From the NCBI GenBank assembly GCA_019314425.1, contig JAFCZI010000023.1, forward strand, positions 1-13,521: a stretch of DNA of 13,521 nucleotides, written 5' to 3'. Within the stretch, counting starts at the first letter, position 1. Each line of letters starts with the position of its first letter. The translations under genes and the position numbers were made by a program. Below the pieces are notes generated by a model that searched no databases, had not been told where the DNA came from, and saw only the letters and a program-made list of their open reading frames with translations. Positions 390 through 13,521 of the stretch are shown one piece after another. The stretch comes from Deltaproteobacteria bacterium (lineage in GTDB: Bacteria > Desulfobacterota > DSM-4660 > Desulfatiglandales > Desulfatiglandaceae).

Positions 390-1511
390 ATGCAACTGAC
401 TGAAAAGCAGATAGATTATTGTATGGAATGCGGCGTATGCACCGGAAGCTGTCCGGTCAACAAAGTGCTTCCGACCTTTTCACCGAGGCAGATGATTAAA
501 AAGGCGTTGCGGGATCCCGCCGGAGAGCCATACCTTGACCCCGGTCTCTGGGCGTGTTTGGGTTGTGCTCGGTGCAGCACACGATGTCCGGTTGGAATCG
601 ACTTCCCGGAATTTGTACGTTTTCTCAGACAGAAGGCGCGGGACGCCGGAAATCTTCCCCACGAAAGCCACCACGGGATTATGCAGTGTGTGGCTGATCT
701 TCAATTGAGCAACCGAACCCAGAATCGAACGGCTTGGGCTGAGGGGGTGGGAGATTTTGCGGAAACCGGGGATATCTTTTACTTTGTGGGATGCCTGCCC
801 TATTTTGAAGTGGTTTTTGAATACTTGGAATTGTCTCCTCTGGAGAGCGCGCGAAGCGTTCTTAAATTGCTGAACCGGATGGGCATTACCCCCGTCATCA
901 GCAATGAAGAGCGGTGTTGCGGACATGACGCGTTTGCCGTCGGCAATGAAGAGAAATTTCGCAAACTGGCGGAACGAAACCTGGAGGTGATAAAGTCTTC
1001 CGGGGCAAAGACAGTCCTGTTCAGCTGCCCGGAAGGGTACACCACGTTCAAGAAGCAATATCCAAAATATTTTGGCAGCCTGCCCTTTGAAGTGCTGCAT
1101 ATGAGCGAGTTTCTGGCCCGTGAGCTGCCCGAGTCCGGGCTTGTCTTCAATCCTTCTGCAAACGGCGGTGTTACATTTCATGATCCCTGCCGCCTGGGAC
1201 GGGGCGCCGGGATTTTTGATGCGCCAAGGGATCTGTTAAAGTGTATTCCGGAGACGACATTGGTGGAGATGGGACGCAACAGGGAGAACGCACTCTGCTG
1301 TGGAACAAGCGCATGGATGGAGTGTTCGAATTGCTCAAAGGCCATGCGGCTTGAACGATTGCAGGAGGCCCTTGACACGGGGACCCATACCATGATCACG
1401 GCGTGCCCCAAATGCCAGATTCACTTCACCTGCGCCCAGCGCACGGCGGAAATGGATTTGAGGATTACGGACATTTACGCCTATCTTTCCGAGCATCTCA
1501 GCAGTGAATGA
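390..1511 (+). CDS. HdrD-like iron-sulfur protein (HdrC ferredoxin part plus two CCG domains)
   Basis: Predicted cytoplasmic electron-transfer subunit of 373 aa, built like HdrD (HdrC and HdrB fused). Two [4Fe-4S] motifs lie at C11/C14/C17/C21 and C56/C59/C62/C66, followed by two CCG (cysteine-rich) domains. CCG1 has C135, the pair C176-C177 and C213, but the last C-x-x-C is replaced by C-P-E-G. CCG2 is complete (C267, C303-C304, C339, C342). In HdrB/HdrD such domains hold noncubane [4Fe-4S] clusters that reduce a disulfide; the substrate here is unknown. The frame is open upstream to a TTG at 303 (402 aa), but that codon sits at the predicted transcription start, has no ribosome site, and the extra 29 residues look unlike the family. 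ATG 390 has only a weak ribosome site. The gene ends 21 bp before hdrA1. GlpC-like or lactate-oxidation (LutA-type) relatives share the fold, but the HdrA/MvhD context favours HdrD. Confidence 0.85.
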   Translation: MQLTEKQIDYCMECGVCTGSCPVNKVLPTFSPRQMIKKALRDPAGEPYLDPGLWACLGCARCSTRCPVGIDFPEFVRFLRQKARDAGNLPHESHHGIMQCVADLQLSNRTQNRTAWAEGVGDFAETGDIFYFVGCLPYFEVVFEYLELSPLESARSVLKLLNRMGITPVISNEERCCGHDAFAVGNEEKFRKLAERNLEVIKSSGAKTVLFSCPEGYTTFKKQYPKYFGSLPFEVLHMSEFLARELPESGLVFNPSANGGVTFHDPCRLGRGAGIFDAPRDLLKCIPETTLVEMGRNRENALCCGTSAWMECSNCSKAMRLERLQEALDTGTHTMITACPKCQIHFTCAQRTAEMDLRITDIYAYLSEHLSSE

Positions 1512-1532
1512 GAAACGTAAGGAGTTGTTACA

Positions 1533-4500
1533 ATGAAATCTGAGAAAGATCAAAAAGTACAAGGCGCCGTGATGGTGGTCGGCGGCGGTATCGCCGGCAT
1601 GCAGTCGGCCCTGGACCTGGCGGACGCAGGGTTTTATGTCCATCTGGTGGAAAAAACACCGGCCATCGGTGGTGTGATGGCCCAGTTGGACAAGACGTTT
1701 CCCACCAACGATTGCGCCATGTGAATTATTTCTCCGAAACTGGTCGAGGTCGGCCGGCATACCAATATTGAACTTCACACCTGCTCAGACGTGGATGAGG
1801 TGAATGGGGAAGAAGGAAACTTTGAAGTTATCCTCACCAAAACGCCGCGATACATTGATCCTGATGTCTGTACCGCATGCGGGGATTGCGCGGTGGCATG
1901 CCCTGTGGAAAGGCCCAGCGAATACGATGTGGCGCTGGTGAACCGCAAGGCCGCTTACAAGTCCTATGCCCAGGCCATTCCCGGAGGTTTTGCCATCGAG
2001 AAATTGGATCTGGCGCCGTGTCGAATGGCCTGTCCGGCCAACCTGAATGTGCAGGGATATGTTCAGATGATCAAGGTGGGAAAATACCGGGAAGCTATTG
2101 AGGTCATCCTGCGAAACCTGCCGTTTCCCGGGGCTCTGGGGCGTATTTGTCCCCATCCTTGTGAAAAGAGTTGCAGACGCCTCGAAGTGGACGAGGCCAT
2201 TTCCATTCGGGAACTCAAGCGTTTTGCTGCAGACCAGGTTGATTTGGCAGATATCCCGGTGCCTGAAATTACGCCTCGCGACGAAAAAGTAGCCATTATC
2301 GGTGCAGGTCCCGCAGGACTTACCGCTGCGTATTTTCTGGCTCTTGACGGCTATTCCGTGACGGTTTATGAGGCCATGCCCGAAGCTGGCGGCATGATGC
2401 GTTACGGTATTCCCGAACATCGGCTGCCGCGGTCTGTGCTGGATGCGGAAATCGGAAATCTCAAGCGATACGGGATCGAGATTCAGACCAATGTGGCCAT
2501 TGGCAAGGACCTCACCCTTGAAGATCTGCGGACCCATGGGGCCAAGGCCATGTTTATCGGCAGCGGCGCTTGGAAGGGGCTCCGGTTGGGCTTGCCTGGT
2601 GAGGACCATGAACAGGTGCTTCATGTGACCACCCTTATGCGGCAGGTTGAGCTGGGAGAACGTGACAGCCTAAAAGGCCGCGTAGTGGTCCTGGGGGCCG
2701 GTCACTCCGGCATCGATGCCGCTCGGGTGGCGCTTCGTCTGGGGGCTGACAGCGTTCACATGGTGGATCCTTTTTCACAGGAGCAGATGCCCTATTCGCC
2801 GGAGGACACACGGGAGATAGAGGCGGAAGGGGCGCGGGTTCTTTTCCAGTCGGCGCCAAGGCGGGTTACCATTGAAAATGACCGTATCGCGGGGGTTGAG
2901 TGTCTTCGCACCCGGCTGACCGGAAAGGATACCACAGGTCGCCGAAAATTCATTCCCATTGAGGGATCGGAGTTCTTTATCGAAGCGGAGCATGTGATTT
3001 CCGCTATTGGCCAGGAACCGGATCTTGATTTTCTGAAGGAAGGCCAGACCCAACTGGAGATTTCAAAATGGAATCACCTGGTGGTTAATCCCGAGACTCT
3101 CCAAACCAGCGAGCCGGGTATTTTTGCGGGTGGCGATGCCATTACCGGCGCAGCGACCGTGATTGAAGCGGTGGAAGCGGGTAAAAGAGCTGCCGGCTAT
3201 ATGGCCAAATATCTGCAGGGTGAAACCCTTCCAACCGAGTGGATCGACGAGCCTCCCATGGGAGATGACTGGACCGATGTCCCAGAAGATATTGAGGAAA
3301 AGCAAAGGCTTCAGGTTCCATCCCTTGCCATGGAGAAGAGGAAGTCAGGCTTTGACGAGATCACGCTGTGCGCCGATGAAACCGCAGCCCGGGAAGAAGC
3401 CGGTCGTTGCCTCAATTGCGGTGGATGCTGTGAATGTTACGAGTGCGTGAAAGCGTGCAAGGCTGAGGCGGTCACGCTCAAAACCCATGCCCAGCAGGTT
3501 GAGCAGCTAAAGCTTAGCGTGGGTGCGGTGATCCTGTCTCCCGGCTTTAAACCCTTTGATCCCAGTCAGTTCGATACCTATCATTATACTACCTATCCCA
3601 ACGTGGTGACCAGTATGGAGTTTGAGCGGACTCTGAGCGCCACGGGACCCAGCATGGGACATTTGCAGCGGCCGTCTGACGGTCAGGCGCCCAGAAAAAT
3701 TGCCTGGTTGCAGTGCGTGGGGTCCAGGGACCTCAACCGTTGCGATCATCCCTATTGCTCTTCTGTTTGCTGCATGTATGCGGTGAAAGAGGCGGTGATC
3801 GCCAAAGAACATGCGGGCGGCGAGTTGGACGCGGCCATCTTTTTCATGGACATGCGGACCTATGGAAAGGATTTTGAACGCTACTATGACCGTGCCAGGG
3901 ATGAGCAGGGGGTTCGGTTCATTCGATCCCGAATTCATTCCGTCTCGGAAGACAGCGAGACCCACAACCCCATCCTGGAATATGTGGATGAAAATGGGGT
4001 CTTTCAATTGGAACAATTTGATTTGGTGGTCCTTTCCGTCGGCCTTGAAACCCAAGATTCCCTGGTGGAGCTGGCCGAAAAGTTGGAAGTGGCGATGGAT
4101 ACCGACAAATTCGTGGAAACCAGTATCTTTAACCCGGTCGAGACCTCGCGGCCCGGCATTTATGTGTGCGGGGCTTTTCAGGAACCCAAGGACATTCCTC
4201 TGTCTGTTATGGAGGCCAGTGCGGCGGCTTGCGATGCCAAAGGAAAGCTTTCAGCGGCCCGGGGTACGCAGGTGACAGAGAGAAGCTACCCGGAAGAGCG
4301 GGATGTTTCCCGGGAAGAACCGCGTATTGGGGTCTTCGTGTGCAATTGCGGTATTAATATCGGCGGCATTGTCAATGTCCCTGAGGTGGTGGAATATGCC
4401 AAGACCCTTCCGGGTGTGGCCTATGTGGACGAAAACCTCTTTACTTGTTCCCAGGATACCCAGGACGTCATGAGGGATGTTATCGAGCGTGAGGGATTGA

Positions 4501-5990
4501 ACCGCGTTGTCGTCGCGGCCTGCACCCCGCGGACCCATGAACCTCTGTTCCAGGAAACCCTGCGGGATGCGGGTTTGAATAAATATCTCTTTGAGATGGC
4601 CAATATTCGCAACCAGTGCTCCTGGGTTCATAGCAAGGAAAAAGATGCGGCCACCCAGAAATCCAAGGACCTGGTGCGGATGGCCGTGGCCCGGGCTCAA
4701 TTAATTCAGCCCCTGCCCCAGCCCACCATTCAAGTTGACAGCAAGGCCCTGGTGATTGGGGGCGGCATCGCCGGCATGGCTGCGGCCGTGGGACTGGCCG
4801 ATCAGGGATACCATACCTATCTGGTGGAGCAGACCGGCCAATTGGGCGGCAATGCCCTGATGCTCAATGAGACCTGGCGGGGAGACAAGATTTCCGACGC
4901 CCTGAAAGGGATGGTTCAGCAGGTGGAGAACCATCCGTTGGTTGATGTCTACAAAGAGGCCGCCATCAAGGATGCTGCCGGGTTTGTGGGTAATTTTGAA
5001 ACCACCATTTCGCACAACGGAACCGAAACCACCCTGAAGCATGGGGCCGTGGTGGTGGCGGTGGGCGGCGAGGAACTCAAACCCTCTGAATATCTCTATG
5101 GTGAGGATGATCGGGTGTTGTCTCACCTGCAATTTGATGCGGCTCTCATGGCTGAAGACGAGCGGGTGAAAAAGGCGGGTTCCGCCGTGTTCATCCAATG
5201 CGTGGGGTCCCGGGAACCGGAAAGGCCCTACTGTTCAAAGGTCTGTTGCACCCACAGCATCAAATCGGCATTGGAATTGAAAGAAATCAATCCCGACATG
5301 GATGTTTTTGTGCTGTATCGGGACATCCGGACTTACGGACAAAGAGAAGCCCTTTACCGCAAGGCCAGAGAAAAAGGTGTGATCTTCATCCGGTACGATC
5401 TGGAACACAAACCACAAGTTCAAAAAGAGGGCAAACAACTGGTGGTGACGGTCATGGACCATATCCTGGGTCGGGAAATTCAAATGAACCCTGATCTGCT
5501 GGTCCTGGCATCCGCCGTTGTACCCCGGGATAACGAAAGCCTGGCCCAGATGTACAAACTCTCCCTGAATGAAGATGGTTTCTTTATGGAGGCCCATGCC
5601 AAGCTGAGGCCCGTTGAGTTCGCATCGGAAGGGATTTTCATGGCGGGCATGGCGCATTATCCAAAGCCCATCGAGGAGAGTGTGGCGCAGGCCAAGGCCG
5701 CTGCATCCAGGGCATCCGTGGTGCTGTCCAAGGAAGAACTTTCCGTGGAAGGGGTGGTGTCCCATGTGGATGAACACTATTGCATCGGTTGCGGTATGTG
5801 CGAGGAGGCTTGTCCCTACGGCGCCATCGGCTTGGTGGACTTGGAAGGCGGCGGGAAGGTGTCCCGGGTGCAACCGGCTCTCTGCAAGGGGTGCGGCGCC
5901 TGTGCCGTGGCTTGTCCCACGGGGGCGGCGGCTATCTTTCATTATGACGATGGAGAAGTATTAAGCATGGTTAACGCGGCCCTGGATTGA
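1533..5990 (+). CDS. hdrA: giant HdrA-type flavoprotein: selenoprotein with inserted GltD/NfnB-like domain and second HdrA half
   Basis: 1485 residues when the TGA at 1722-1724 is read as Sec64. Order: FAD fold with a GGGIAG loop near the N-terminus; Sec64 after NDCAM, where most HdrA have Cys; [4Fe-4S] C113/116/119/123; GltD/NfnB-like insertion about 155-620 (Cys 163/167/206/210/214, GAGPAG 257-262, second nucleotide fold near 386); Cys-rich stretch 626-642; HdrA QCVGSRD and CC motif; then from about 930 the classical HdrA N-domain, a second FAD fold (near 1077) and two [4Fe-4S] at 1417-1427 and 1451-1461. HdrA carries the bifurcating flavin and exchanges electrons with MvhD, HdrBC and ferredoxin. 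The inserted domain lacks the paired arginines usual for NADPH binding, so its nucleotide is uncertain. ATG 1533 has TAAGGAG at 1518-1524. The stop is a tandem TGA TGA. There is no frameshift: the frame is the same on both sides of the Sec codon. Confidence 0.9.
1722..1753 (+). promoter_or_regulatory. Sec UGA codon and SECIS hairpin of hdrA1
   Basis: TGA at 1722-1724 is followed by a hairpin: CCGA (1734-1737) pairs with TCGG (1750-1753), inner CT (1740-1741) with AG (1747-1748), and the loop is GGTCG (1742-1746). The loop begins 18 nt after the UGA, in the bacterial SECIS window, and begins with GG. The stem is short and bulged, the weakest of the six in this window. A competing 3-bp stem with a GGCC loop lies just downstream. 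The main support for Sec is the protein alignment across the codon. Confidence 0.7.
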
Positions 5991-6074
5991 TGATTGACGA
6001 TTGATGATCCGACCGTCGTAGTCATTTTGGCGGAGTCGGCTTGATGACAATACGCAATCCGAACGGAGTTTCTT
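5991..6074. other. spacer with short TGATGATTGACGA-type repeats
   Basis: The 84-bp gap between hdrA1 and mvhD1 starts with imperfect repeats of ATTGATGA/ATTGACGA and then has a GC-rich stretch in which CCGAC and GTCGG could pair. No promoter or terminator is clear. The ribosome site CGGAG (6064-6068) lies 6 bp before the mvhD1 ATG. Confidence 0.5.
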
Positions 6075-6494
6075 ATGAGTGACGTATTTGATCCCAAGAT
6101 CGTAACATTTGCATGCAACTGGTGCGCCTATTCTGCCGCTGATCTGGCAGGGGTGAGCCGTTTTCAATATCCGCCCAACATGAGAATTATCCGGGTCATG
6201 TGTTCCGGTAGGATAAACCCGAATTTTATTCTCAAGGCGTTTCAACAGGGCGCGGATGGCGTTCTGGTGTCCGGGTGACACTTCGGTGACTGTCATTACC
6301 TGGATGGTAATGTAAAAGCGGAAAAGATGTTTGAACTGACACAGAAACTGATCAAGCTCTTAGGCATTGATCTGGAAAGGCTCAGACTCGAGTGGATTTC
6401 CTCGGCTGAAGGGACCCGGTTTGCCGAGGTGGCCAGGGAGTTCACGGAAAAGATCCGTTCCCTGGGGCCGGCTACATTGAAGCAGGCGGCTTGA
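6075..6494 (+). CDS. mvhD: MvhD-type [2Fe-2S] electron-transfer subunit, selenoprotein (one Sec)
   Basis: 139 residues with TGA 6276-6278 read as Sec68. MvhD (VhuD/FrhD-like) is the small [2Fe-2S] protein that links a hydrogenase or formate dehydrogenase to HdrA. Family marks: C14-N-W-C17, then AADLAG, RVMCSG with C43, GADGV, and G-U68-H-x-G-D-C73-H-Y, where U68 replaces a conserved Cys of the cluster-binding set. The C-terminal helical part contains the typical SSAEG. The length is normal for the family, and with UGA as stop the protein would lose the second half of its binding site. Start ATG 6075 has CGGAG six bases upstream. The stop TGA is followed at once by TAA. It sits between two HdrA genes and probably serves hdrA1. 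The paralogue at 9883 has two Sec. Confidence 0.92.
6276..6312 (+). promoter_or_regulatory. Sec UGA codon and SECIS hairpin of mvhD1
   Basis: TGA at 6276-6278. Downstream, CATTACC (6294-6300) pairs perfectly with GGTAATG (6306-6312), leaving loop TGGAT (6301-6305), which starts 23 nt after the UGA. The loop has G at positions 2 and 3, as bacterial SECIS elements need. The same hairpin at the same distance follows the second UGA of mvhD2. Confidence 0.8.
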
Positions 6495-6560
6495 TAAAAA
6501 GCTGTTAGCGATTAGCTGTTGGCTAAAACCTAATGGCTAATGGCTAATAGCTAAAAAAAT
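6495..6560. repeat. AT-rich spacer of GCTAATAGCTAA-type repeats
   Basis: Between mvhD1 and hdrA2, bases 6500-6556 are mostly variants of GGCTAATAGCTAA / TTAGCTGTTGGC, with several TAGCTA-like palindromic pieces. The same family of units fills the gap at 9806-9860. No gene lies here. The ribosome site AGGAG (6561-6565) follows immediately. Whether it shapes RNA processing is unknown. Confidence 0.65.
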
Positions 6561-6572
6561 AGGAGAATGACC

Positions 6573-8105
6573 GTGAGTAAGGATATTCTTGTAATTGGGG
6601 GCGGCATTGCGGGGATCCAGTCGTCATTGGATCTGGCCGAGATGGGGTTCAAGGTCCACCTGGTGGAACGACTCCCCAGCATCGGCGGGAAAATGGCGCA
6701 ACTGGATAAGACATTTCCCACCAACGATTGCGCCATCTGAATCCTTTCGCCCAAGATGCTGGATGTCGGTCGACATCCCAATATCGAACTTCTGGCGTAT
6801 TCCGAAGTTCTGGAAGTCAAAGGGGAAGAAGGCGATTTCAAGGTTACCGTCAAACGGAAGGCCCGTTATGTGGACGAGGACAAGTGCACGGGTTGCGGTG
6901 CCTGTAAGGAGAAATGTCCCACCGTGATTCCCGATGCCTTTGAAGAAGGTCTGGGAACCCGTCGGGCCATTTATAGCTGGTTTGCCCAGGGCATTCCGTC
7001 TACCCATACCATTGATTCGGATCATTGTCGGCAGTTGAACGGCAAAAAATGCGGCATCTGCGCCAAGGTTTGCCAGGCCGATGCCATCAATTTTGATCAG
7101 AAGGACCGAATTGTTGATCTGGACGTGGGGGCCATTATTGTGGCTTCCGGTTATGAGGTGTTTGATCCCTCTCGTATTCCGGAATACCAGTATCGTGAGA
7201 TTCCCAATGTGGTGACGGCTATTGAGCTTGAAAGATTGTTGAGCGCCAGCGGTCCCACCAGCGGCCATCTGGATCGACCTTCGGATCTGGCTGTGGAAGC
7301 AGAGATCGAAATCCTGAAGAAAGCCCATGGAAAATCGCAAAAACAACTGGCCAAACTGGAGGAAAAGTTTGGTGAGGCGTCCTCCGGGTTTTACGCTAAA
7401 TTCAAAAAGGGTGAATACGAGGGTGATCAGGACCGGGAAAAATGGGCACAGAAATATGAAAAACATTTGACTATTGAAGAACCGCTTCTGAAGCTTGAAA
7501 AACAGGCTGAGGGGTTTCAAGCGGCCAAAAAACTGGCTTTCATTCAGTGCGTGGGCTCCCGGGATCTTCGATTTTATCCCTTTTGTTCCGGTTATTGTTG
7601 TATGCATTCCATCAAGGAAGCGATTATCGCCAGGGAACATGGACCGGAAACCACCTCAACCATTTTCGGTATGGATATTCGCGCGGTGGGAAAAGGGTTT
7701 GAGGAGTATAAGGTGCGCGGCGGCGAGCAGTCCGGTGTTACCTATGTGCGGGGACGGATCGCGGAGATCAACGAAGGCCCCGACCATAACCCCGTGTTGA
7801 CCTACGAGGATACCCGCGAGGGAAAGGTCAAGAACGAGGCTTTTGACCTGGTGATTCTGGCTACGGCCTGCGCCCCGTCCAGCGGAAACGTCCCATTGGC
7901 GGAGATCCTCGGCATTGAACTGAACCCTTTCGGTTTTTTTAAGACCGACACGTCACAACCTATGGACACAACCCGGGCCGGAATCTTTACCTGCGGTTGT
8001 GCGCACAGCCCGATCGATATTCCGGAATCCGTGGCTCAGGCCAGCGGAGCGGCCGCCCGAGCGGCGAGGACGATTATGAGCGCTGATATGCGCAAGGCAT
8101 CATGA
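6573..8105 (+). CDS. hdrA: HdrA-type flavoprotein lacking the N-domain, selenoprotein (HdrA-2)
   Basis: 510 residues with TGA 6738-6740 read as Sec56. It starts directly with the FAD fold (GGGIAG at 9-14) and has NDCAI-Sec, the site that is Cys in most HdrA. Then come [4Fe-4S] C105/108/111/115 and a Cys set C152, C160, C163, C167 ([16 protein letters not shown]), then QCVGSRD with C326, C338 and C342-C343, where HdrA holds a cluster near the flavin. An insertion of about 80 residues (about 239-319), rich in Lys, Glu and Gln and probably coiled coil, splits the FAD fold just before QCVGSRD; hdrA1 lacks it. The classical HdrA N-domain is missing and is found in the next gene. The likely start is GTG 6573, seven bases after AGGAG (6561-6565); the in-frame ATG at 6567 is only one base from that site. 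It overlaps the first ATG of the next frame at ATGA (8102-8105). Confidence 0.9.
6738..6778 (+). promoter_or_regulatory. Sec UGA codon and SECIS hairpin of hdrA2
   Basis: TGA at 6738-6740. A perfect 7-bp stem, GGATGTC (6761-6767) with GACATCC (6772-6778), closes the tetraloop GGTC (6768-6771). The loop starts 28 nt after the UGA. A GGUC apical loop is the same motif as in the E. coli fdhF SECIS. Confidence 0.85.
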
Positions 8106-8119
8106 AGGAGTCTGCCAGC

Positions 8120-9805
8120 ATGAGCAAGAAAGAGAAAAAACAATCCAATGCCCAGGCCAAACGGATCGGTGTGTTTATCTGCGATTGCGGGTCTAATATT
8201 GCCGGGCACCTGGACTGCCCTGAGGTGACCCGTTACGCAGCCACTCTTCCAGGCGTGGTGTATGCCAAGGAGAACCTTTATACCTGCTCTGAAGCGGGCA
8301 TCGGGGAGATCATGAACGGGATCAAGGAAAATGATCTGAATCGGGTGGTGGTGGCGTCTTGCTCCCCCCGAACCCACCAACCGCTTTTTTGCAGTTCCTG
8401 TGCCCAGGCCGGGTTGAATCCGTATCTGTTCGAAATGGCCAATATCCGCGACCAGTGTTCGTGGGTGCATATGGGAAACAAAGAAGGGGGTACCGAAAAA
8501 GCCAAGGATCTGGTGCGCATGGCCGTGGCCAAGGCGGCGTTCCTTGAGCCGCAGCAGGAGATCGAGGCTGACTTAACCCCGCGGGTGATAGTGCTGGGCG
8601 GCGGTGTGGCCGGTCTTTCCGCCGTGGAGACCCTGGCGGATATGGGCCTTGATGTGGTTCTGGTGGAACAGGCCCCCGAACTGGGCGGTTTCTTAAACCG
8701 GATTGACCGCCTGCCTTCAGGGGAAAAAGCGTCTGACCGTCTGTCTGCCCTGGTGGAAAGCGTTCGTTCAAAATCGAATGTGAAGATCTATCTGAATGCC
8801 GAAGCGAAAACGGTGGGCGGATATATCGGCAATTACGAAATCGGCGTTCGTCAGGCGGACGGTTCCATTGTGGATGAACTGGTGGGATGCATTGCCGTGG
8901 CAACCGGGGCGCTGCCCTTGGTGCCGCAGGGCCTTTACGGGTATGACGGAAAGAAGGTCATCACTCAGGCGGAGCTGGAAGAACGGTTTATTGAAGGGAA
9001 ATTCGATTCACAGCGGGTGGTCATGATTCAATGTGTGGGCGCTCGTTCTGAAGAGCGGAAATATTGTTCCCGCATCTGCTGCCAGACTGCGGTCAAGAAC
9101 GCGCAGTTTATCAAACAACGAAATCCCGATGCCCATGTGCATATCCTCTATCGGGATATGCAGATGTACGGCACGGGAAAGGAAAAGATGCTGTGGGATG
9201 CCCGGGGGGAGGGCGTTCGCTTTGATGTTTATGATCCCGAACAACCCCCGGAAGTGAACGATGGCGAGGTCCGTTTTTTTCAGGTGCTCACCGGCGATAC
9301 CGAAACGATTCCGTGCGATCTGGTGGTCCTGTCGACGCCTCTGATTCCACGGGAAGATGCACCGGATCTGTCCAAGCTCTTGAGGGTGCCCATTGACCGG
9401 AACCATTTCTTTATGGAAGCCCACGCCAAATTGCGGCCACTGGATTTTGCGACGGACGGCATCTTTGTTTGCGGTTCCGCCCGTTATCCCGCCAATGTGG
9501 AAGAGGCAATATCCCAGGGTCTGGGGGTGGCGTCCAGGATCGGCACGATCCTTTTCAAAGACAAACTGGTGACCAGCGCCATTGTGGCGGAAATCAATCC
9601 GGATACTTGCGTCGGGTGCCAGGGGTGCATGGAAATGTGCCCCTATGACGCCATACAGTATTTACCCGAAAAAAGAATTTGCGAGGTAAACCGGATCCTT
9701 TGCAAGGGCTGTGGGTGTTGTGCCGCCACATGTCCGTCCCAGAGCGCCATGCTGAAAGGTTACAAGCCGCAGCAGTTGCTGAGTCAGATCAGGGCGGTTT
9801 GCTGA
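8120..9805 (+). CDS. hdrA: HdrA-type flavoprotein with N-domain and C-terminal two [4Fe-4S] ferredoxin (HdrA-3)
   Basis: 561 residues, no Sec. The classical HdrA N-domain (about 15-145: RIGVFICDCG, RVVVASCSPR, QCSWVH) is followed by a FAD fold (GGGVAG 160-165), the QCVGARS and CC motif, and two C-terminal [4Fe-4S] sets C497/500/503/507 and C528/531/534/538. The FAD fold lacks the inserted ferredoxin and the NDCA(C/U) site, which are present in HdrA-2, so the two proteins probably form one functional HdrA pair. It is equivalent to about residues 927-1485 of hdrA1 and similar in length. The frame also has ATG at 8102 overlapping the hdrA2 stop, but GAAGGAG (8104-8110) lies nine bases before ATG 8120, so the latter is the better start. 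The arrangement recalls QmoA/QmoB of sulfate reducers (QmoB = HdrA plus MvhD), and here mvhD2 follows as a separate gene. Confidence 0.88.
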   Translation: MSKKEKKQSNAQAKRIGVFICDCGSNIAGHLDCPEVTRYAATLPGVVYAKENLYTCSEAGIGEIMNGIKENDLNRVVVASCSPRTHQPLFCSSCAQAGLNPYLFEMANIRDQCSWVHMGNKEGGTEKAKDLVRMAVAKAAFLEPQQEIEADLTPRVIVLGGGVAGLSAVETLADMGLDVVLVEQAPELGGFLNRIDRLPSGEKASDRLSALVESVRSKSNVKIYLNAEAKTVGGYIGNYEIGVRQADGSIVDELVGCIAVATGALPLVPQGLYGYDGKKVITQAELEERFIEGKFDSQRVVMIQCVGARSEERKYCSRICCQTAVKNAQFIKQRNPDAHVHILYRDMQMYGTGKEKMLWDARGEGVRFDVYDPEQPPEVNDGEVRFFQVLTGDTETIPCDLVVLSTPLIPREDAPDLSKLLRVPIDRNHFFMEAHAKLRPLDFATDGIFVCGSARYPANVEEAISQGLGVASRIGTILFKDKLVTSAIVAEINPDTCVGCQGCMEMCPYDAIQYLPEKRICEVNRILCKGCGCCAATCPSQSAMLKGYKPQQLLSQIRAVC

Positions 9806-9870
9806 GATCGCTATTGGCTGTTAGCGGTTAATAGCTAATAGCTAACGGCTAATAGCTTCTTTTAATACTA
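9806..9870. repeat. AT-rich spacer of GGCTAATAGCT-type repeats
   Basis: The 77-bp gap between hdrA3 and mvhD2 is filled up to about 9860 with variants of GGTTAATAGCTAATAGCTAA, the same kind of unit as at 6500-6556. GCTATT and AATAGC pieces can pair. A weak ribosome site GAGGA (9872-9876) precedes the mvhD2 ATG. No promoter is clear. Confidence 0.65.
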
Positions 9871-9882
9871 CGAGGACCCATT

Positions 9883-10326
9883 ATGAGTGACGTTAATTTT
9901 GAACCCAAAATTGTTTGCTTTTTGTGTACGTGGTGAGCATACGCCGCTGCTGACCTGGCTGGGGTTAGTCGACTGCAGTATCCAACGAACATCAGGATTG
10001 TTCGGGTGATGTGTTCCGGGAGTGTATCCCCTCACCATATTCTGAGGGCATTTCAACAGGGCGTGGACGGCGTGTTTGTGGGTGGGTGACACCTGGGCGA
10101 CTGCCATTACCTGTATGGTAATTATGCGACCAAAAAGAGAATCAGTTTTTTAAGAGACCTGCTGGGTTTCGTCGGGATTGAGTCGGACCGGCTTCGATCC
10201 AGGTGGGTATCTTCAGCGGAAGGGCCGGAATTCGCCCACGAAGTCATCGATTTTATTGACAGTCTCAAAGCAATGGGTCCGTCGCCGTTGAAGCAGCCGG
10301 AAAGAGCGGCGCTTCGTGCGGCCTGA
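9883..10326 (+). CDS. mvhD: MvhD-type [2Fe-2S] electron-transfer subunit, selenoprotein with two Sec
   Basis: 147 residues when two in-frame TGA codons (9934-9936, 10087-10089) are read as Sec18 and Sec69. The frame is continuous from ATG 9883 to the stop at 10324-10326. Alignment with mvhD1 puts Sec18 on its C17 (C-x-W-C becomes C15-T-W-U18) and Sec69 on its Sec68 (GG-U-HLGDCHY). Remaining conserved Cys are C15, C44 and C74. The protein should carry one [2Fe-2S] cluster and pass electrons from FdhA and the FdhB-like protein to HdrA-2/3. VhuD of Methanococcales is also known with two Sec, so the pattern has a precedent in archaea. A Sec-blind gene call would find no ORF over 60 codons on this strand. 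The C-terminal helix region diverges from mvhD1. Confidence 0.9.
9934..9969 (+). promoter_or_regulatory. first Sec UGA codon and SECIS hairpin of mvhD2
   Basis: TGA at 9934-9936. CTGACC (9950-9955) pairs with GGTTAG (9963-9968), one pair being G-U, and a further G-U pair joins 9949 to 9969. Loop TGGCTGG (9956-9962) starts 20 nt after the UGA and has G at its second position. Spacing and loop suit a bacterial SECIS. Confidence 0.72.
10087..10122 (+). promoter_or_regulatory. second Sec UGA codon and SECIS hairpin of mvhD2
   Basis: TGA at 10087-10089. ATTACC (10106-10111) pairs with GGTAAT (10117-10122) around loop TGTAT (10112-10116), starting 23 nt after the UGA. Stem and spacing are the same as in mvhD1, with one loop base and the lowest stem pair changed, so the SECIS is conserved between paralogues. 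Confidence 0.8.
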
Positions 10327-10398
10327 TGCCGTTGGCGGAATCGATAACCTTAAAACCTAAAACTTAAAACTGCGGCTCTGCCGCTTTAGGATGTTTCC
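10327..10398. other. spacer with TTAAAACCTAAAAC-type repeat and small hairpin
   Basis: This 72-bp gap holds three A-rich units (TTAAAACC, TAAAACTT, AAAACTG; 10350-10371) and then the hairpin GCGGC-TCT-GCCGC (10372-10384) followed by TTT. Three T residues are too few for a confident terminator, so partial attenuation is only a guess. AGGA (10388-10391) is the ribosome site of the next gene. Confidence 0.5.
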
Positions 10399-11199
10399 AT
10401 GAGTGAAAATGTAAGGAACAAGGTCAAAGAGCTGTTGGGTTTAGGGAAGATAAATGGTTTTTTAGGCCTGAGCAATAAATATGGCCACATCGGTCCCCAC
10501 CTTTTCACCGATGAAAAGGATCTGGATCATCTGGTGGTGGGGGATTGGGAGCAACCGGGGGATACCCGGTATACACTCAATAAACAGCTTATTCACATCG
10601 CCTTGAAGTATCCGGAGGAGACCTTCGGTGTCCTGGTGCGGGGTTGCGATGAGCGAGGCCTGAAATCCCTTTACACCTGGAACCAGCTGAATCTGGAAAA
10701 AGTGGTTCCCGTGGGAGTGGCCTGCCCGCCGATGCTGGCGGCCTATTGCGAATGCCGGAAACCGTTTCCCGATGAATTTGTGGAAGGGGAAAAAACCGAC
10801 GGGGTGGAGGCCCTTTCCGTGGCCAAAATTGACCACCTCGATCTGGCAGGGCGGTTTGACTATTGGACGGATGCTTTTTCCAGGTGCATCAAGTGCTATG
10901 GATGCCGGGATGTGTGCCCCATGTGTTTTTGCAAAGAATGCGCGTTGGAAGACGACAACCTGGTGGCAACGGGTGCCATACCCCCTGAAATTCCCGTCTT
11001 TCACCTGACGCGGGCCATCCACATGGTAGGCCGGTGTATTGATTGCGGGCTTTGCAACGAGGCCTGTCCGTCGGATATTCCCCTTCGGACGTTGTATAAG
11101 AAAGTAGCGGATATTATTGACGACCAATTCCAGTACCGTCCCGGATACACGGCAGGGAAGTCTCCCCTGAACGTCCTGGGTGTCGGCACTGAGGCATAA
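10399..11199 (+). CDS. FdhB/FrhB-like iron-sulfur linker subunit
   Basis: 266 residues, soluble. The first 130 residues resemble part of the FrhB/FdhB family (VRGCDERGLKSL matches the family's CDxRA-type stretch, followed by a VGVAC-P element). Then come two [4Fe-4S] motifs, C163/166/169/173 and C213/216/219/223. Three further cysteines (C176, C178, C181) make seven Cys in 19 residues and could bind another cluster or metal. The protein is shorter than methanogen FdhB and has no clear flavin or F420 domain, so it is more likely a pure electron linker between FdhA and MvhD/HdrA. ATG 10399 has AGGA seven bases upstream. The gene ends 18 bp before fdhA, which points to co-translation. The family assignment is moderate; the iron-sulfur motifs are plain. 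Confidence 0.8.
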   Translation: MSENVRNKVKELLGLGKINGFLGLSNKYGHIGPHLFTDEKDLDHLVVGDWEQPGDTRYTLNKQLIHIALKYPEETFGVLVRGCDERGLKSLYTWNQLNLEKVVPVGVACPPMLAAYCECRKPFPDEFVEGEKTDGVEALSVAKIDHLDLAGRFDYWTDAFSRCIKCYGCRDVCPMCFCKECALEDDNLVATGAIPPEIPVFHLTRAIHMVGRCIDCGLCNEACPSDIPLRTLYKKVADIIDDQFQYRPGYTAGKSPLNVLGVGTEA

Positions 11200-11217
11200 G
11201 AAAAGGGAGGCGTACTC

Positions 11218-13254
11218 ATGGACTATAAGACCGTGCTGACCACCTGCACCTACTGCGGTTGCGGATGTGGTTTTTATCTGGAGGTGCTTGACGGTCAGAT
11301 TATCGATACCATTCCCTGTAAGACCCATCCGGTTAGCCAGGGGAAGCTTTGCATTAAAGGCTGGAATGTTCATGAATTCATTCAGAGCCCCAATCGACTG
11401 ACCGCTCCGCTGGTTCGAAAGAACGGCGAGTTGGTGGAAGTTTCCTGGGATGAAGCCTTGGATTATACGGTGTCGAAGCTGAAAAGCATCAAAGCCTCCG
11501 ACGGGGGCGATGCCATTGCCTTTTTGACCTCGGCCAAGGTCACCAACGAGGAGAATTACCTGCTCCAGAAATTTGCACGCGCTGCCGTGGGAACCAACAG
11601 CGTGGACCATTGCGCACGTCTCTGACACTCTTCCACTGTGGCAGGTCTTGCCGCAGCGTTCGGAAGTGGCGCCATGACCAACTCTATTGATGAGATCCAG
11701 GATTCGGAGTGTATCTTTGTGATCGGTTCCAATACCACCTCCTCCCATCCCCTGGTGGCCACCCGGATTTTCAGGGCCAAACAGAAAGGCGCCAAACTGG
11801 TGCTTGCCGATCCCCGGAAAATTCAACTGGCTTCTGAAGCGGACGTTCACCTTCGCCAGAACCTGGGAACCGATGTGGCGTTGCTCAATGGTATGATGCA
11901 TGTGATACTGGATCGGAAATGGCATGACCCGGCCTTCATCGAAGCGCGCACCGAAGGGTTTGAGGAATTCAAGAAGGTCCTTGAAGACTATACGCCGGAA
12001 AAAGCCGCAGCGATTACGGGCATTCCAGCGGAAGATATCATTAAAGCCGCCGAATATTTCGGTACTGCTGAAACCGCCACCATTATCTACTGTATGGGCA
12101 TTACCCAGCATACCACCGGCGTGGACAATGTGAAGAGCCTGGCCAATCTGGCCATGCTTACGGGAAACATCGGGAGAGAGGCCACGGGGGTAAATCCCCT
12201 GCGAGGGCAGAACAACGTGCAGGGCGCCTGCGATATGGGGGGGCTGCCCAATGTGTATCCGGGGTATCAGCCGGTTACCACCCTTGACGCCCAGAAGAAA
12301 TTTTCCGATGCATGGCATGCGGAGCTGTCCGATAAAACGGGCCGAACCGTTCCGGAAATGCTGGATGGTCTCAGTGACGGTTCCGTGAAAGCCCTCTATG
12401 TGATGGGGGAAAACCCGGTGCAGAGTGACCCGGATACGACCCATGTGAAAAAAGCCCTTGCGGCTGCGGAGTTGCTGGTGGTTCAGGATATTTTTCTGAC
12501 CCCCACGGCCCAGATGGCCCACGTGGTCCTGCCGGGGGCCTGTTTTGCTGAAAAGGACGGGACCTTCAGCAACACGGAAAGACGGGTTAGCCGCGTTCGA
12601 AAGGCCGTTGATCCGGTGGGCGATGCCCGGGCCGATTGGGAAATCATTCAGGAGATTTCTACCCGTTTTGGATATGAAATGAACTACGAATCACCGGCGG
12701 CCATCATGGATGAAATTGCCGCTGTAACCCCATCGTACGGTGGTATCGCTTATGATCGTCTGGAGGGTGAAGGGTTGCAATGGCCCTGCCCGGATCGGGA
12801 TCATCCCGGAACCAAATTTCTCCACAAGGACGCTTTTGCCCGGGGAAAAGGGCTTTTCCATGCCATTTCATTTAAGCCGCCCGCAGAGGTTGTGGATGAA
12901 GAATATCCCTTGTGGTTGACCACGGGGCGGGTGTTTGCCCATTATCATACCGCCACCATGACCCGGAACTGCCCAAGGTTGGATGATGAAATTCGGGAAG
13001 GCTTTCTGGAATTGAATCCCGAGGATGCCGATATTCTCGGCGTCATAGAAGGTGACGCAGTGAAAGTGGCCTCCCGACGGGGAGAGATAAAGGTCAGAAC
13101 GACGGTTACGGACCGCGTGAACCCGGGCGTTTTGTTCCTGCCTTTTCACTTCATTGAAAGCAATGCCAACGTGTTGACCAACCCCGCGTTTGACCCCATT
13201 GCCAAAATCCCCGAATTCAAGGTGTGCGCCGTGAAGCTGGAGAAGGCGGCGTAG
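11218..13254 (+). CDS. fdhA: formate dehydrogenase catalytic subunit, molybdopterin selenoprotein
   Basis: 678 residues with TGA 11623-11625 read as Sec136. It catalyses formate oxidation to CO2 (or the reverse) at a Mo- or W-bis-MGD centre. Marks: N-terminal [4Fe-4S] C10/C13/C17/C45 with K47 two residues after the last Cys (as in E. coli FdhF C42/K44); CARL-U136-H137, matching FdhF Sec140-His141; the central molybdopterin domain; and a C-terminal dinucleotide-binding domain starting near 565 (LTTGR-x-x-x-HYHT). Length is close to FdhF (715 aa). No Tat signal, so cytoplasmic. ATG 11218 lies seven bases after AAGGGAGG (11203-11210). It ends with TAG, the only TAG stop in the cluster. No quinone or membrane subunit follows; the FdhB-like, MvhD and HdrA neighbours suggest electrons go to the Hdr complex. 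Confidence 0.95.
11623..11656 (+). promoter_or_regulatory. Sec UGA codon and SECIS hairpin of fdhA
   Basis: TGA at 11623-11625. CTGTGGCA (11636-11643) pairs with TGCCGCAG (11649-11656) over 8 bp, one of them U-G, and closes loop GGTCT (11644-11648). The loop starts 19 nt after the UGA. Stem, loop and spacing are very close to the E. coli fdhF SECIS. Confidence 0.9.
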
Positions 13255-13521
13255 GGAATTTGCCAAGATAGACCCTCCCTGTGGTGTATTCAGGCGTTTT
13301 GCGTAGAGGTTGCACTTGGATAGGAAAAGGAAACTGATTTTCTGTTCGTAAACATCCTTGTCTTCATCGAGGCTGTCAAAATTACCGCCACCCTTTGAAA
13401 TGATCAGATCAGACTTCTTATAAAGTTCCTGGACCTCCGGGGAACACCGGGAAACCCGGGTCCCCGGAAACGGGTCGTCAATGCCGTTGGGCAATACCGG
13501 GACAATCTCGTCCATCTTCAC
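13255..13521 (-). CDS. DUF89/ARMT1-like phosphatase, C-terminal part (runs off the window)
   Basis: Minus-strand frame entering from the right edge; only the C-terminal 89 or so residues are visible. They match the DUF89 (damage-control phosphatase, ARMT1-like) C-terminus: VLPNGIDDPFPGT, an S-P-E-x-x-x-L stretch, DLIISKGGGNFDSL and FLSKCNLYAKRLN-x-P-x-GGSI. The KG-x-GN loop and the NG-x-D-x-P-GT motif belong to the metal and phosphate site of the family. Homologues normally end soon after the GGS-(I/V) stretch, but here the frame has no stop there and stays open through the antisense of fdhA to 12868. That tail looks like pure fdhA shadow, so I give only the part outside fdhA. The true 3' end may be lost or frameshifted. 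Convergent with fdhA and unrelated to its pathway. Confidence 0.7.
13437..13467. repeat. strong nested inverted repeat inside the DUF89 gene
   Basis: Outer arms CCGGGGA (13437-13443) and TCCCCGG (13461-13467) pair over 7 bp; inner arms CCGGG (13447-13451) and CCCGG (13455-13459) pair around AAA. It lies in coding sequence (the PGTRVSRCSPE region), about 180 bp past the fdhA stop. No T run follows on either strand, so it is not a standard terminator. Confidence 0.5.

What the first reader, a model, noticed from the sequence alone, without database searches (positions are those of the whole stretch)
390..13254. Whole formate-to-HdrA electron relay made of selenoproteins
Seen: six in-frame TGA codons in five genes (hdrA1, mvhD1, hdrA2, mvhD2 twice, fdhA), each followed at 18-28 nt by a hairpin loop with G at its start. 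Each position is Cys or Sec in relatives. Known: Methanococcales use Sec in FdhA, VhuD and HdrA, and Sec forms of HdrA and MvhD are reported from deltaproteobacteria. Inferred: FdhA, MvhD and HdrA form one complex in which Sec at every step tunes potential or oxygen recovery. The parallel with methanogens, despite a different SECIS system, suggests functional selection on the chain as a whole.
Basis: partly seen in the sequence, partly recalled or inferred. Interest (0 to 1): 0.85.

Follow-up and report, generated by a model that had tools for sequence, protein, structure and literature searches.

The report
Selenium-rich formate-driven electron-bifurcation operon
This bacterial gene cluster appears to encode a formate-powered electron-splitting enzyme with a selenium-containing amino acid at six places along its wiring; the cluster is real and conserved, but of a kind already described in related bacteria and in methane-making archaea.

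Summary
Six in-frame TGA codons in five genes (1722, 6276, 6738, 9934, 10087, 11623) sit where relatives mostly carry Cys or Sec. All six are TGA in the two nearest relatives found, one of them delta proteobacterium NaphS2, with purifying selection after the last TGA of each gene. The window's own genome has selA, selB, selD and tRNA-Sec. Hairpins alone are weak evidence: 90 of 287 other TGAs pass the same model and energy limit. But Sec orthologues fit it far more often than Cys orthologues at two of four site types.

The cluster most likely encodes a formate dehydrogenase / MvhD / HdrA electron-bifurcating complex. Both HdrA Sec residues lie at Cys197, the published inter-subunit ligand of the N-terminal [4Fe-4S] cluster.

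'Selection on the chain as a whole' is not established. Sec states of neighbouring hdrA and mvhD agree in 110 of 141 loci, also within genomes, but independent contrasts on trees are too few. Similar loci are in print for Desulfobacterium autotrophicum; a methanogen-type counterpart is in the PDB.

The parts
390..1511 (+). HdrD-like protein (4Fe-4S dicluster plus two CCG cysteine-rich stretches), no Sec
   Evidence: Pfam CCG two stretches, E 1.1e-25; NCBIfam hits all below their cut-offs
1533..5990 (+). HdrA1 / HdrL-type fusion: TrxR half with Sec64, GltD-like NAD(P)-binding insert (about residues 158-655), then N-terminal-type Fe-S domain, second TrxR half and ferredoxin domains
1722..1724 (+). 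UGA, Sec64 of HdrA1 (Cys197 equivalent)
1740..1757 (+). bSECIS-like hairpin, dG -9.1, loop AGGU, spacing 22
6075..6494 (+). MvhD1 (FlpD, PF02662), Cys at site 18, Sec at site 69 (MvhD2 numbering)
6276..6278 (+). UGA, Sec68 of MvhD1
6294..6312 (+). bSECIS-like hairpin, dG -7.3, loop UGGAU, spacing 22
6567..8105 (+). HdrA2: TrxR/FAD and inserted ferredoxin part with Sec58, without the N-terminal Fe-S domain
6738..6740 (+). UGA, Sec58 of HdrA2, aligned with residue 197 of 5odc_A
6755..6785 (+). bSECIS-like hairpin, dG -10.6, loop GGUC, spacing 27
8102..9805 (+). HdrA3: N-terminal Fe-S domain, FAD half without Cys197, C-terminal ferredoxin domain; no Sec
9883..10326 (+). MvhD2 (FlpD) with two Sec residues
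9934..9936 (+). UGA, Sec18 of MvhD2 (CxxU)
9939..9981 (+). bSECIS-like hairpin, dG -13.9, loop GGCUG, spacing 20
10087..10089 (+). UGA, Sec69 of MvhD2 (GUHxGDCH)
10102..10128 (+). bSECIS-like hairpin, dG -6.5, loop UGUAU, spacing 22
10399..11199 (+). FdhB-like Fe-S protein ('P7'); the F420/flavin domain of FdhB is not recognised
   Evidence: matches FdhB chains 9t1s_M, 8rvu_E, 7bkb_E chiefly in their C-terminal Fe-S part; only Fer4-type families in Pfam up to E 10
11218..13254 (+). FdhA, formate dehydrogenase catalytic subunit with Sec136
   Evidence: TIGR01591 885.6 bits, cut-off 666.25; best PDB match 9t1s_L
11623..11625 (+). UGA, Sec136 of FdhA
11620..11678 (+). SECIS_3-like element of fdhA (hairpin 11634-11658, dG -12.1)

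Best explanation
A real selenoprotein operon of an anaerobic deltaproteobacterium that encodes a soluble formate-dependent flavin-based electron-bifurcating (or confurcating) complex. FdhA (Sec on the Mo/W cofactor) oxidises formate or reduces CO2; the FdhB-like Fe-S protein, without a recognisable F420 domain, hands electrons to the [2Fe-2S] protein MvhD2; MvhD2 feeds the bifurcating FAD of the HdrA2-HdrA3 heterodimer. In that heterodimer, and within the fused HdrL-type HdrA1, the half that lacks the N-terminal Fe-S domain supplies residue 197 as the fourth, inter-protomer ligand of the partner's N-terminal [4Fe-4S] cluster, and here that residue is Sec. HdrA1 with its NAD(P)-binding insert, MvhD1 and the HdrD-like protein probably form a second module that couples to NAD(P)H and to a disulfide. 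Shown: gene content, Sec codons, Sec machinery, alignment of the Sec sites, complementary loss of site 197. Inferred: that all subunits form one complex, the direction of flow, the acceptors, and that Sec is a cluster ligand in HdrA and MvhD.
For: All six UGAs kept in NaphS2 and MASpbin.1, dN/dS 0.06-0.12 after the last UGA of each of the five genes (L227 and L228 rows), with the same order of the searched genes and the same Sec pattern. selA 611 bits, selB 390, selD 387, tRNA-Sec 70.7 bits, each over its cut-off in the own genome. Sec-vs-Cys orthologue contrast of the hairpins at two site types. Families: TIGR01591, PF02662 twice, HdrA models, CCG. HdrA2 U58 aligns with residue 197 of 5odc_A, and HdrA3 lacks it; Cys197 as inter-subunit ligand and the complementary pattern of tandem or fused HdrA are described in PMC9012536 (passages). 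FdhAB-MvhD feeding HdrA is known structurally (PMC12350162 passages; PDB names). PDB chains 9sfi_A and 9t1s_L carry a non-standard residue (X) exactly at the HdrA and FdhA Sec positions.
Against: No expression, selenium or interaction data. Hairpins of single sites are not unusual, and at two of four site types Sec and Cys orthologues do not differ clearly. The genome is an 80% complete, 5% contaminated bin of 475 contigs; the window is one whole contig, so linkage beyond it is unknown. No HdrBC pair as in methanogens, only one HdrD-like protein. HdrA models score under their whole-protein cut-offs, as expected for split or fused HdrA. MvhD ligands were not checked on coordinates; Ser or Asp replaces site 18 in 4 of 194 relatives, so Sec18 may not be a ligand. 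In 8 of 58 related genomes no tRNA-Sec was found under strict filters, although at least G057, G106, G168 and G354 show a Sec-type HdrA.
Confidence: 0.8

Rival explanations
1. Sec sits at every step because selection acts on the whole relay: a Sec-containing donor demands Sec-containing acceptors (matched potentials, joint repair after oxygen), so the parts gain and lose Sec together.
For: HdrA/MvhD neighbour pairs agree in 110 of 141 (69 both Sec, 41 both Cys, 26 HdrA-Sec with MvhD-Cys, 5 the reverse; odds ratio 22; 53 of 194 MvhD had no HdrA site in reach and were left out); in 20 informative genomes with 76 loci 64 agree, 40.4 expected, 0 of 20000 shuffles as high. Among 32 loci with FdhA, MvhD and HdrA in reach, FdhA-Sec goes with HdrA-Sec in 29 of 29 and FdhA-Cys with HdrA-Cys and MvhD-Cys in 3 of 3, although those genomes (G236, G271, G272) have tRNA-Sec. 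Double-Sec MvhD occurs only just upstream of the FdhB-like gene: 11 of 66 against 0 of 128.
Against: On the tree of joined HdrA and MvhD sequences only 7 well-supported independent pairs differ in HdrA: MvhD goes the same way in 2.6, the other way in 0.1, does not differ in 4.2; median p 0.25. On the HdrA-only tree: 6 pairs, 2.1 same, 0.5 opposite, 3.4 no difference. FdhA tree: 2 changes, one well-supported pair. Double-Sec needs only 3 changes. MvhD is Cys-only in 9 of 29 FdhA-Sec/HdrA-Sec loci.
Confidence: 0.25
2. Sec in each gene is a lineage and operon-inheritance trait: selenium-rich deltaproteobacteria took up or evolved Sec forms of HdrA, MvhD and FdhA early, and operon types are passed on whole (partly by lateral transfer with archaea).
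For: Few changes on trees; several Sec paralogues in one genome (own genome: 6 of 10 MvhD with TGA); lateral transfer argued in PMC1794560 (passages).
Against: Within one genome Sec and Cys operons coexist and rarely mix; what independent contrasts there are lean the same way.
Confidence: 0.6
3. [quoted passage not shown]
For: tRNAs that look like selC* occur in 10 of the 58 related genomes, 5 of them with a TCA anticodon; the class is described in PMC7609411 (passages).
Against: Own genome has a canonical tRNA-Sec (70.7 bits, TCA) and no hit in the 52-61 bit range of the selC*-like genes; selA and a Sec-type selD are present. The genome is only 80% complete.
Confidence: 0.05
4. Some of the TGAs are true stops or sequencing errors, giving split proteins.
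For: None of weight; split HdrA proteins do occur in this family.
Against: All six TGAs are kept in two relatives at 79-94% protein identity, with purifying selection before the first and after the last TGA of each gene; Cys or Sec in nearly all relatives at the MvhD sites.
Confidence: 0.02

Closest known systems
Delta proteobacterium NaphS2, contig ADZZ01000711.1 (L228), and MAG MASpbin.1 (L227)
   Same: Same order of the searched genes and all six Sec codons; protein identity 79-94% for the five Sec genes
   Different: Nothing of note found; whether the locus is described in a paper was not settled (listing only)
Desulfobacterium autotrophicum HRM2 hdrL/hdrA-mvhD-fdhBA loci (PMC2702500; passages seen)
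   Same: Sec in HdrA1/2, HdrL1/3, MvhD1/2/3/5 and FdhA1/3/5/6; hdrA/hdrL next to mvhD; fdhB then fdhA beside them in loci V and VI; tandem hdrL/hdrA in locus VIII
   Different: The passages do not describe one operon with HdrL, MvhD, HdrA, MvhD, FdhB-like protein and FdhA carrying six Sec, nor two Sec in one bacterial MvhD; the DNA was not compared here
Methanogen-type Fdh-MvhD-HdrABC complexes (PDB 7bkb; 9t1s/9sfi)
   Same: FdhA, FdhB, MvhD and HdrA chains; non-standard residue X at the HdrA and FdhA Sec positions in 9sfi_A and 9t1s_L
   Different: HdrC chains present; FdhB named as F420-linked; in 7bkb_A one HdrA chain matches both the N-terminal domain and the residue-197 part; no HdrL. Organism and paper of 9t1s/9sfi not seen; VhuD residues of 9sfi_K not seen
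Syntrophobacter fumaroxidans glpC-hdrA-frhD-frhG-frhA selenoprotein operons (PMC1794560; passages)
   Same: Sec-containing HdrA and FrhD (MvhD) in one operon, hdrA doubled or split, an added Fe-S oxidoreductase
   Different: Hydrogenase subunits (FrhG, FrhA) instead of formate dehydrogenase, and the GlpC-type protein is itself Sec-containing

Membership tests
Bacterial selenoprotein gene (SelB/bSECIS type) | In-frame UGA followed by conserved coding sequence | tested here: met
   6 of 6 UGAs kept in two relatives, dN/dS 0.06-0.12 after the last UGA of each gene; the stretch between the two UGAs of MvhD2 was not computed apart
Bacterial selenoprotein gene (SelB/bSECIS type) | bSECIS hairpin 16-37 nt downstream, G in first two loop positions, dG at most -7.5 | tested here: inconclusive
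   Geometry 6 of 6, energy 4 of 6; 90 of 287 control TGAs also pass both. Sec vs Cys orthologues differ at the HdrA site and MvhD site 69, not clearly at MvhD site 18 or FdhA; SECIS_3 match at fdhA below the gathering score
Bacterial selenoprotein gene (SelB/bSECIS type) | selA, selB, selC, selD in the genome | tested here: met
Bacterial selenoprotein gene (SelB/bSECIS type) | Selenium actually inserted | not testable with these tools
   Needs 75-Se or mass spectrometry
HdrA-type flavin-based bifurcating complex with formate dehydrogenase | HdrA with FAD domain, N-terminal Fe-S domain and residue 197 | tested here: met
   Split over HdrA2 (U197) and HdrA3 (N-terminal domain, no 197), and fused in HdrA1
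HdrA-type flavin-based bifurcating complex with formate dehydrogenase | MvhD with its five conserved Cys/Sec | tested here: met
   MvhD1 CCCUC, MvhD2 CUCUC; aligned with 5odc_D and 7bkb_F
HdrA-type flavin-based bifurcating complex with formate dehydrogenase | FdhA catalytic subunit | tested here: met
   TIGR01591 over cut-off
HdrA-type flavin-based bifurcating complex with formate dehydrogenase | FdhB with F420/FAD domain | tested here: not met
   Chiefly the C-terminal Fe-S part recognised; so it is not the F420-linked methanogen type
HdrA-type flavin-based bifurcating complex with formate dehydrogenase | HdrB/HdrC disulfide-reducing subunits | tested here: inconclusive
   One HdrD-like protein with two CCG stretches; HdrB/HdrC models far below cut-off
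HdrA-type flavin-based bifurcating complex with formate dehydrogenase | Subunits form one complex that bifurcates electrons | not testable with these tools
   Biochemistry needed
HdrL (HdrA with NAD(P)-binding insert) | GltD-like NAD(P)-binding module inside an HdrA fusion | tested here: met
   Pyr_redox_2 (192 bits, cut-off 26.1) and Fer4_20 (60 bits, cut-off 25.8) between residues 161 and 550 of HdrA1; PRK12771 500.6 bits over 158-655, just under its cut-off of 516

The most novel reading that the evidence does not exclude
A selenolate-wired relay: Sec occupies a metal-ligand position at successive stations of one formate-to-flavin path (Mo/W in FdhA, the [2Fe-2S] cluster in MvhD, the inter-protomer ligand of the HdrA N-terminal [4Fe-4S] cluster), and these Sec residues are gained and lost together because Se ligation sets matched potentials or lets the intersubunit cluster be rebuilt after oxidation.
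Probability: 0.2. Interest if true: 0.75.

Novelty: new member of a known kind. Interest (0 to 1): 0.42.

Why it matters
It ties the Sec of HdrA to a defined structural role, the shared ligand between two HdrA protomers, and shows that Sec and Cys versions of neighbouring hdrA, mvhD and fdhA genes seldom mix even within one genome. That makes the open question of why selenium is used in Fe-S relays testable with matched Sec and Cys operons. Practically, Sec codons read as stops hide HdrA in gene prediction (noted for archaea in PMC12054007, passage), so formate-linked bifurcation may be missed in such genomes.

Tried and rejected
Hairpin prediction alone as proof of SECIS: rejected, since 90 of 287 other TGAs pass and synonymous redraws often do as well. 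Raw Sec concordance as proof of chain-wide selection: not accepted after the tree-based contrasts. UGA read as Cys through selC*: disfavoured for this genome. Plasmid origin: one distant plasmid record each for MvhD2 (49% identity) and the FdhB-like protein (25%), both Ilyobacter NC_014633.1, so no support for a mobile element. One dN/dS row was dropped: L048 shows no MvhD between its two HdrA genes, so the MvhD1 match is to another MvhD. Paper searches made; no claim is made that this locus is absent from print. The Olavius symbiont paper (PMC1976440) was not held. No structure prediction was run: the tool's description offers no coordinates from which cluster ligands could be measured.
Full report
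What is there. The window is a whole contig (G000:C311, 13521 bases) of a 2.81 Mb bin, 80% complete. On the + strand it carries eight genes: an HdrD-like protein (390-1511), a 1485-residue HdrA fusion of the HdrL kind (1533-5990), MvhD1 (6075-6494), HdrA2 (6567-8105), HdrA3 (8102-9805), MvhD2 (9883-10326), an FdhB-like Fe-S protein (10399-11199) and FdhA (11218-13254). Reading TGA as Sec gives six internal Sec residues in five of them.

Are they Sec? The own genome has selA (611 bits), selB (390), selD (387, itself with one TGA) and a tRNA-Sec (70.7 bits), each over its cut-off. All six TGAs are TGA in delta proteobacterium NaphS2 (L228) and in MAG MASpbin.1 (L227), the two best of six loci in the named-genome scan, with the same order of the searched genes; dN/dS after the last TGA of each gene is 0.06-0.12. 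Across 58 related genomes and the own one (181 loci, half of them chosen by hand), MvhD site 69 is Cys or Sec in 194 of 194, site 18 in 190 of 194, the FdhA site in 52 of 60. Each single hairpin could be chance: 90 of 287 other TGAs of the window pass the bSECIS model with its energy limit, and 188 without it. The contrast between orthologues is stronger: the geometry fits 92 of 92 Sec but 46 of 66 Cys HdrA sites, and 67 of 70 Sec but 30 of 110 Cys MvhD-69 sites; there is no clear difference at MvhD-18 or FdhA. These rows share ancestry. The fdhA element matches Rfam SECIS_3 at 47.9 bits, under the curators' 63.

How it most likely works. [quoted passage not shown] The window has FdhA, an FdhB-like protein recognised chiefly by its C-terminal Fe-S part, MvhD2 and the HdrA2-HdrA3 pair side by side. 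HdrA2 Sec58 aligns with residue 197 of 5odc_A; HdrA3 has the N-terminal Fe-S domain and lacks residue 197. The fused HdrA1 has Sec in its first half and an N-terminal-type Fe-S domain in the second. PMC9012536 (passages) describes Cys197 as the ligand that one protomer gives to the other's N-terminal [4Fe-4S] cluster, and proposes heterodimers for tandem or fused HdrA with complementary loss. So both HdrA Sec residues are expected to be intersubunit cluster ligands. In MvhD five Cys/Sec are conserved; site 18 is the one replaced in otherwise intact-looking sequences (Ser 3, Asp 1 of 194), so Sec69 is the better candidate for a ligand. This is inference.

Is there selection on the chain? Of 194 MvhD, 141 have an HdrA site in reach; the two agree in 110 (69 both Sec, 41 both Cys, 26 HdrA-Sec with MvhD-Cys, 5 the reverse), and 133 of these loci lie in genomes where a tRNA-Sec was found (tRNA-Sec in 50 of 58 genomes). 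Of the 8 genomes without a find, at least G057, G106, G168 and G354 show Sec-type HdrA, so the tRNA search or the assemblies miss some. Shuffling within 20 informative genomes never reached the observed 64 of 76 (mean 40.4, 20000 shuffles). FdhA and HdrA agree in 32 of 32 loci where both are in reach of an MvhD (29 Sec, 3 Cys); one further locus with a Gly-type FdhA homologue is not counted, and the other 20 of 52 Sec/Cys FdhA sites had no such pair. But the changes behind this are few: 12 for HdrA and 14 for MvhD on the joined tree, 2 for FdhA. Independent pairs lean the same way without reaching significance (2.6 same, 0.1 opposite, 4.2 no difference of 7; on the HdrA-only tree 2.1, 0.5 and 3.4 of 6). 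Ancestry of whole operons explains the pattern as well. In 9 of 29 Sec-FdhA/Sec-HdrA loci MvhD has no Sec.

What is known. Desulfobacterium autotrophicum HRM2 has Sec forms of HdrA, HdrL, MvhD and FdhA, with hdr, mvhD and fdh genes clustered (PMC2702500, passages); Desulfococcus multivorans has Sec HdrA, MvhD and FdhA at three separate places (PMC5109826, passages); Sec hdrA-frhD-frhG-frhA operons of deltaproteobacteria and archaea are described in PMC1794560 (passages) and reviewed in PMC13188914 (passages), which lists two Sec for the FrhD/MvhD/VhuD family and speaks of multiple Sec in archaeal ones. PDB 9sfi/9t1s hold a methanogen-type HdrA, VhuD and formate dehydrogenase set with a non-standard residue at the HdrA and FdhA Sec positions; organism and paper were not seen. 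So this is a new member of a known kind. The two-Sec bacterial MvhD, found only just upstream of the FdhB-like gene (11 of 66 against 0 of 128, at least 3 changes on a tree), is the least familiar detail.

Noticed in passing
L129:8864-8955, L133:8821-8912, L134:8851-8942, L136:5241-5332; also L127, L128, L130, L131, L132, L135: Ten of 58 related genomes carry a second tRNA-Sec-like gene of 52-61 bits (selC*-like; 5 with GCA, 5 with TCA anticodon). In four it lies about 30-115 nt upstream of, and on the same strand as, the matched start of a Cys-only mvhD of a PCTGR/GCLPGxCHY variant.
   Followed up: partly
MvhD2 9883-10326 and relatives: Double-Sec MvhD (sites 18 and 69) occurs only directly upstream of the FdhB-like gene: 11 of 66 there, 0 of 128 elsewhere.
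   Followed up: partly
L077, L083, L086, L087, L089, L090, L096, L100: FdhA-like proteins with Gly, Ala or Asn aligned to the Sec/Cys metal-ligand position, inside fetched hdrA-mvhD loci; probably not formate dehydrogenases.
   Followed up: no
own genome, contigs C311, C320, C337, C260, C438, C198, C96, C317, C319: Ten MvhD homologues, six of them with one or two in-frame TGAs.
   Followed up: partly
window 6495-6560 and 9806-9860: Both long intergenic gaps hold similar AT-rich runs of TTAGC/GCTAA words (seen by eye only).
   Followed up: no
window 12868-13521, - strand: A - strand reading frame of 217 codons begins at the contig end and runs antisense into fdhA; its first part, outside fdhA, was not identified.
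   Followed up: no
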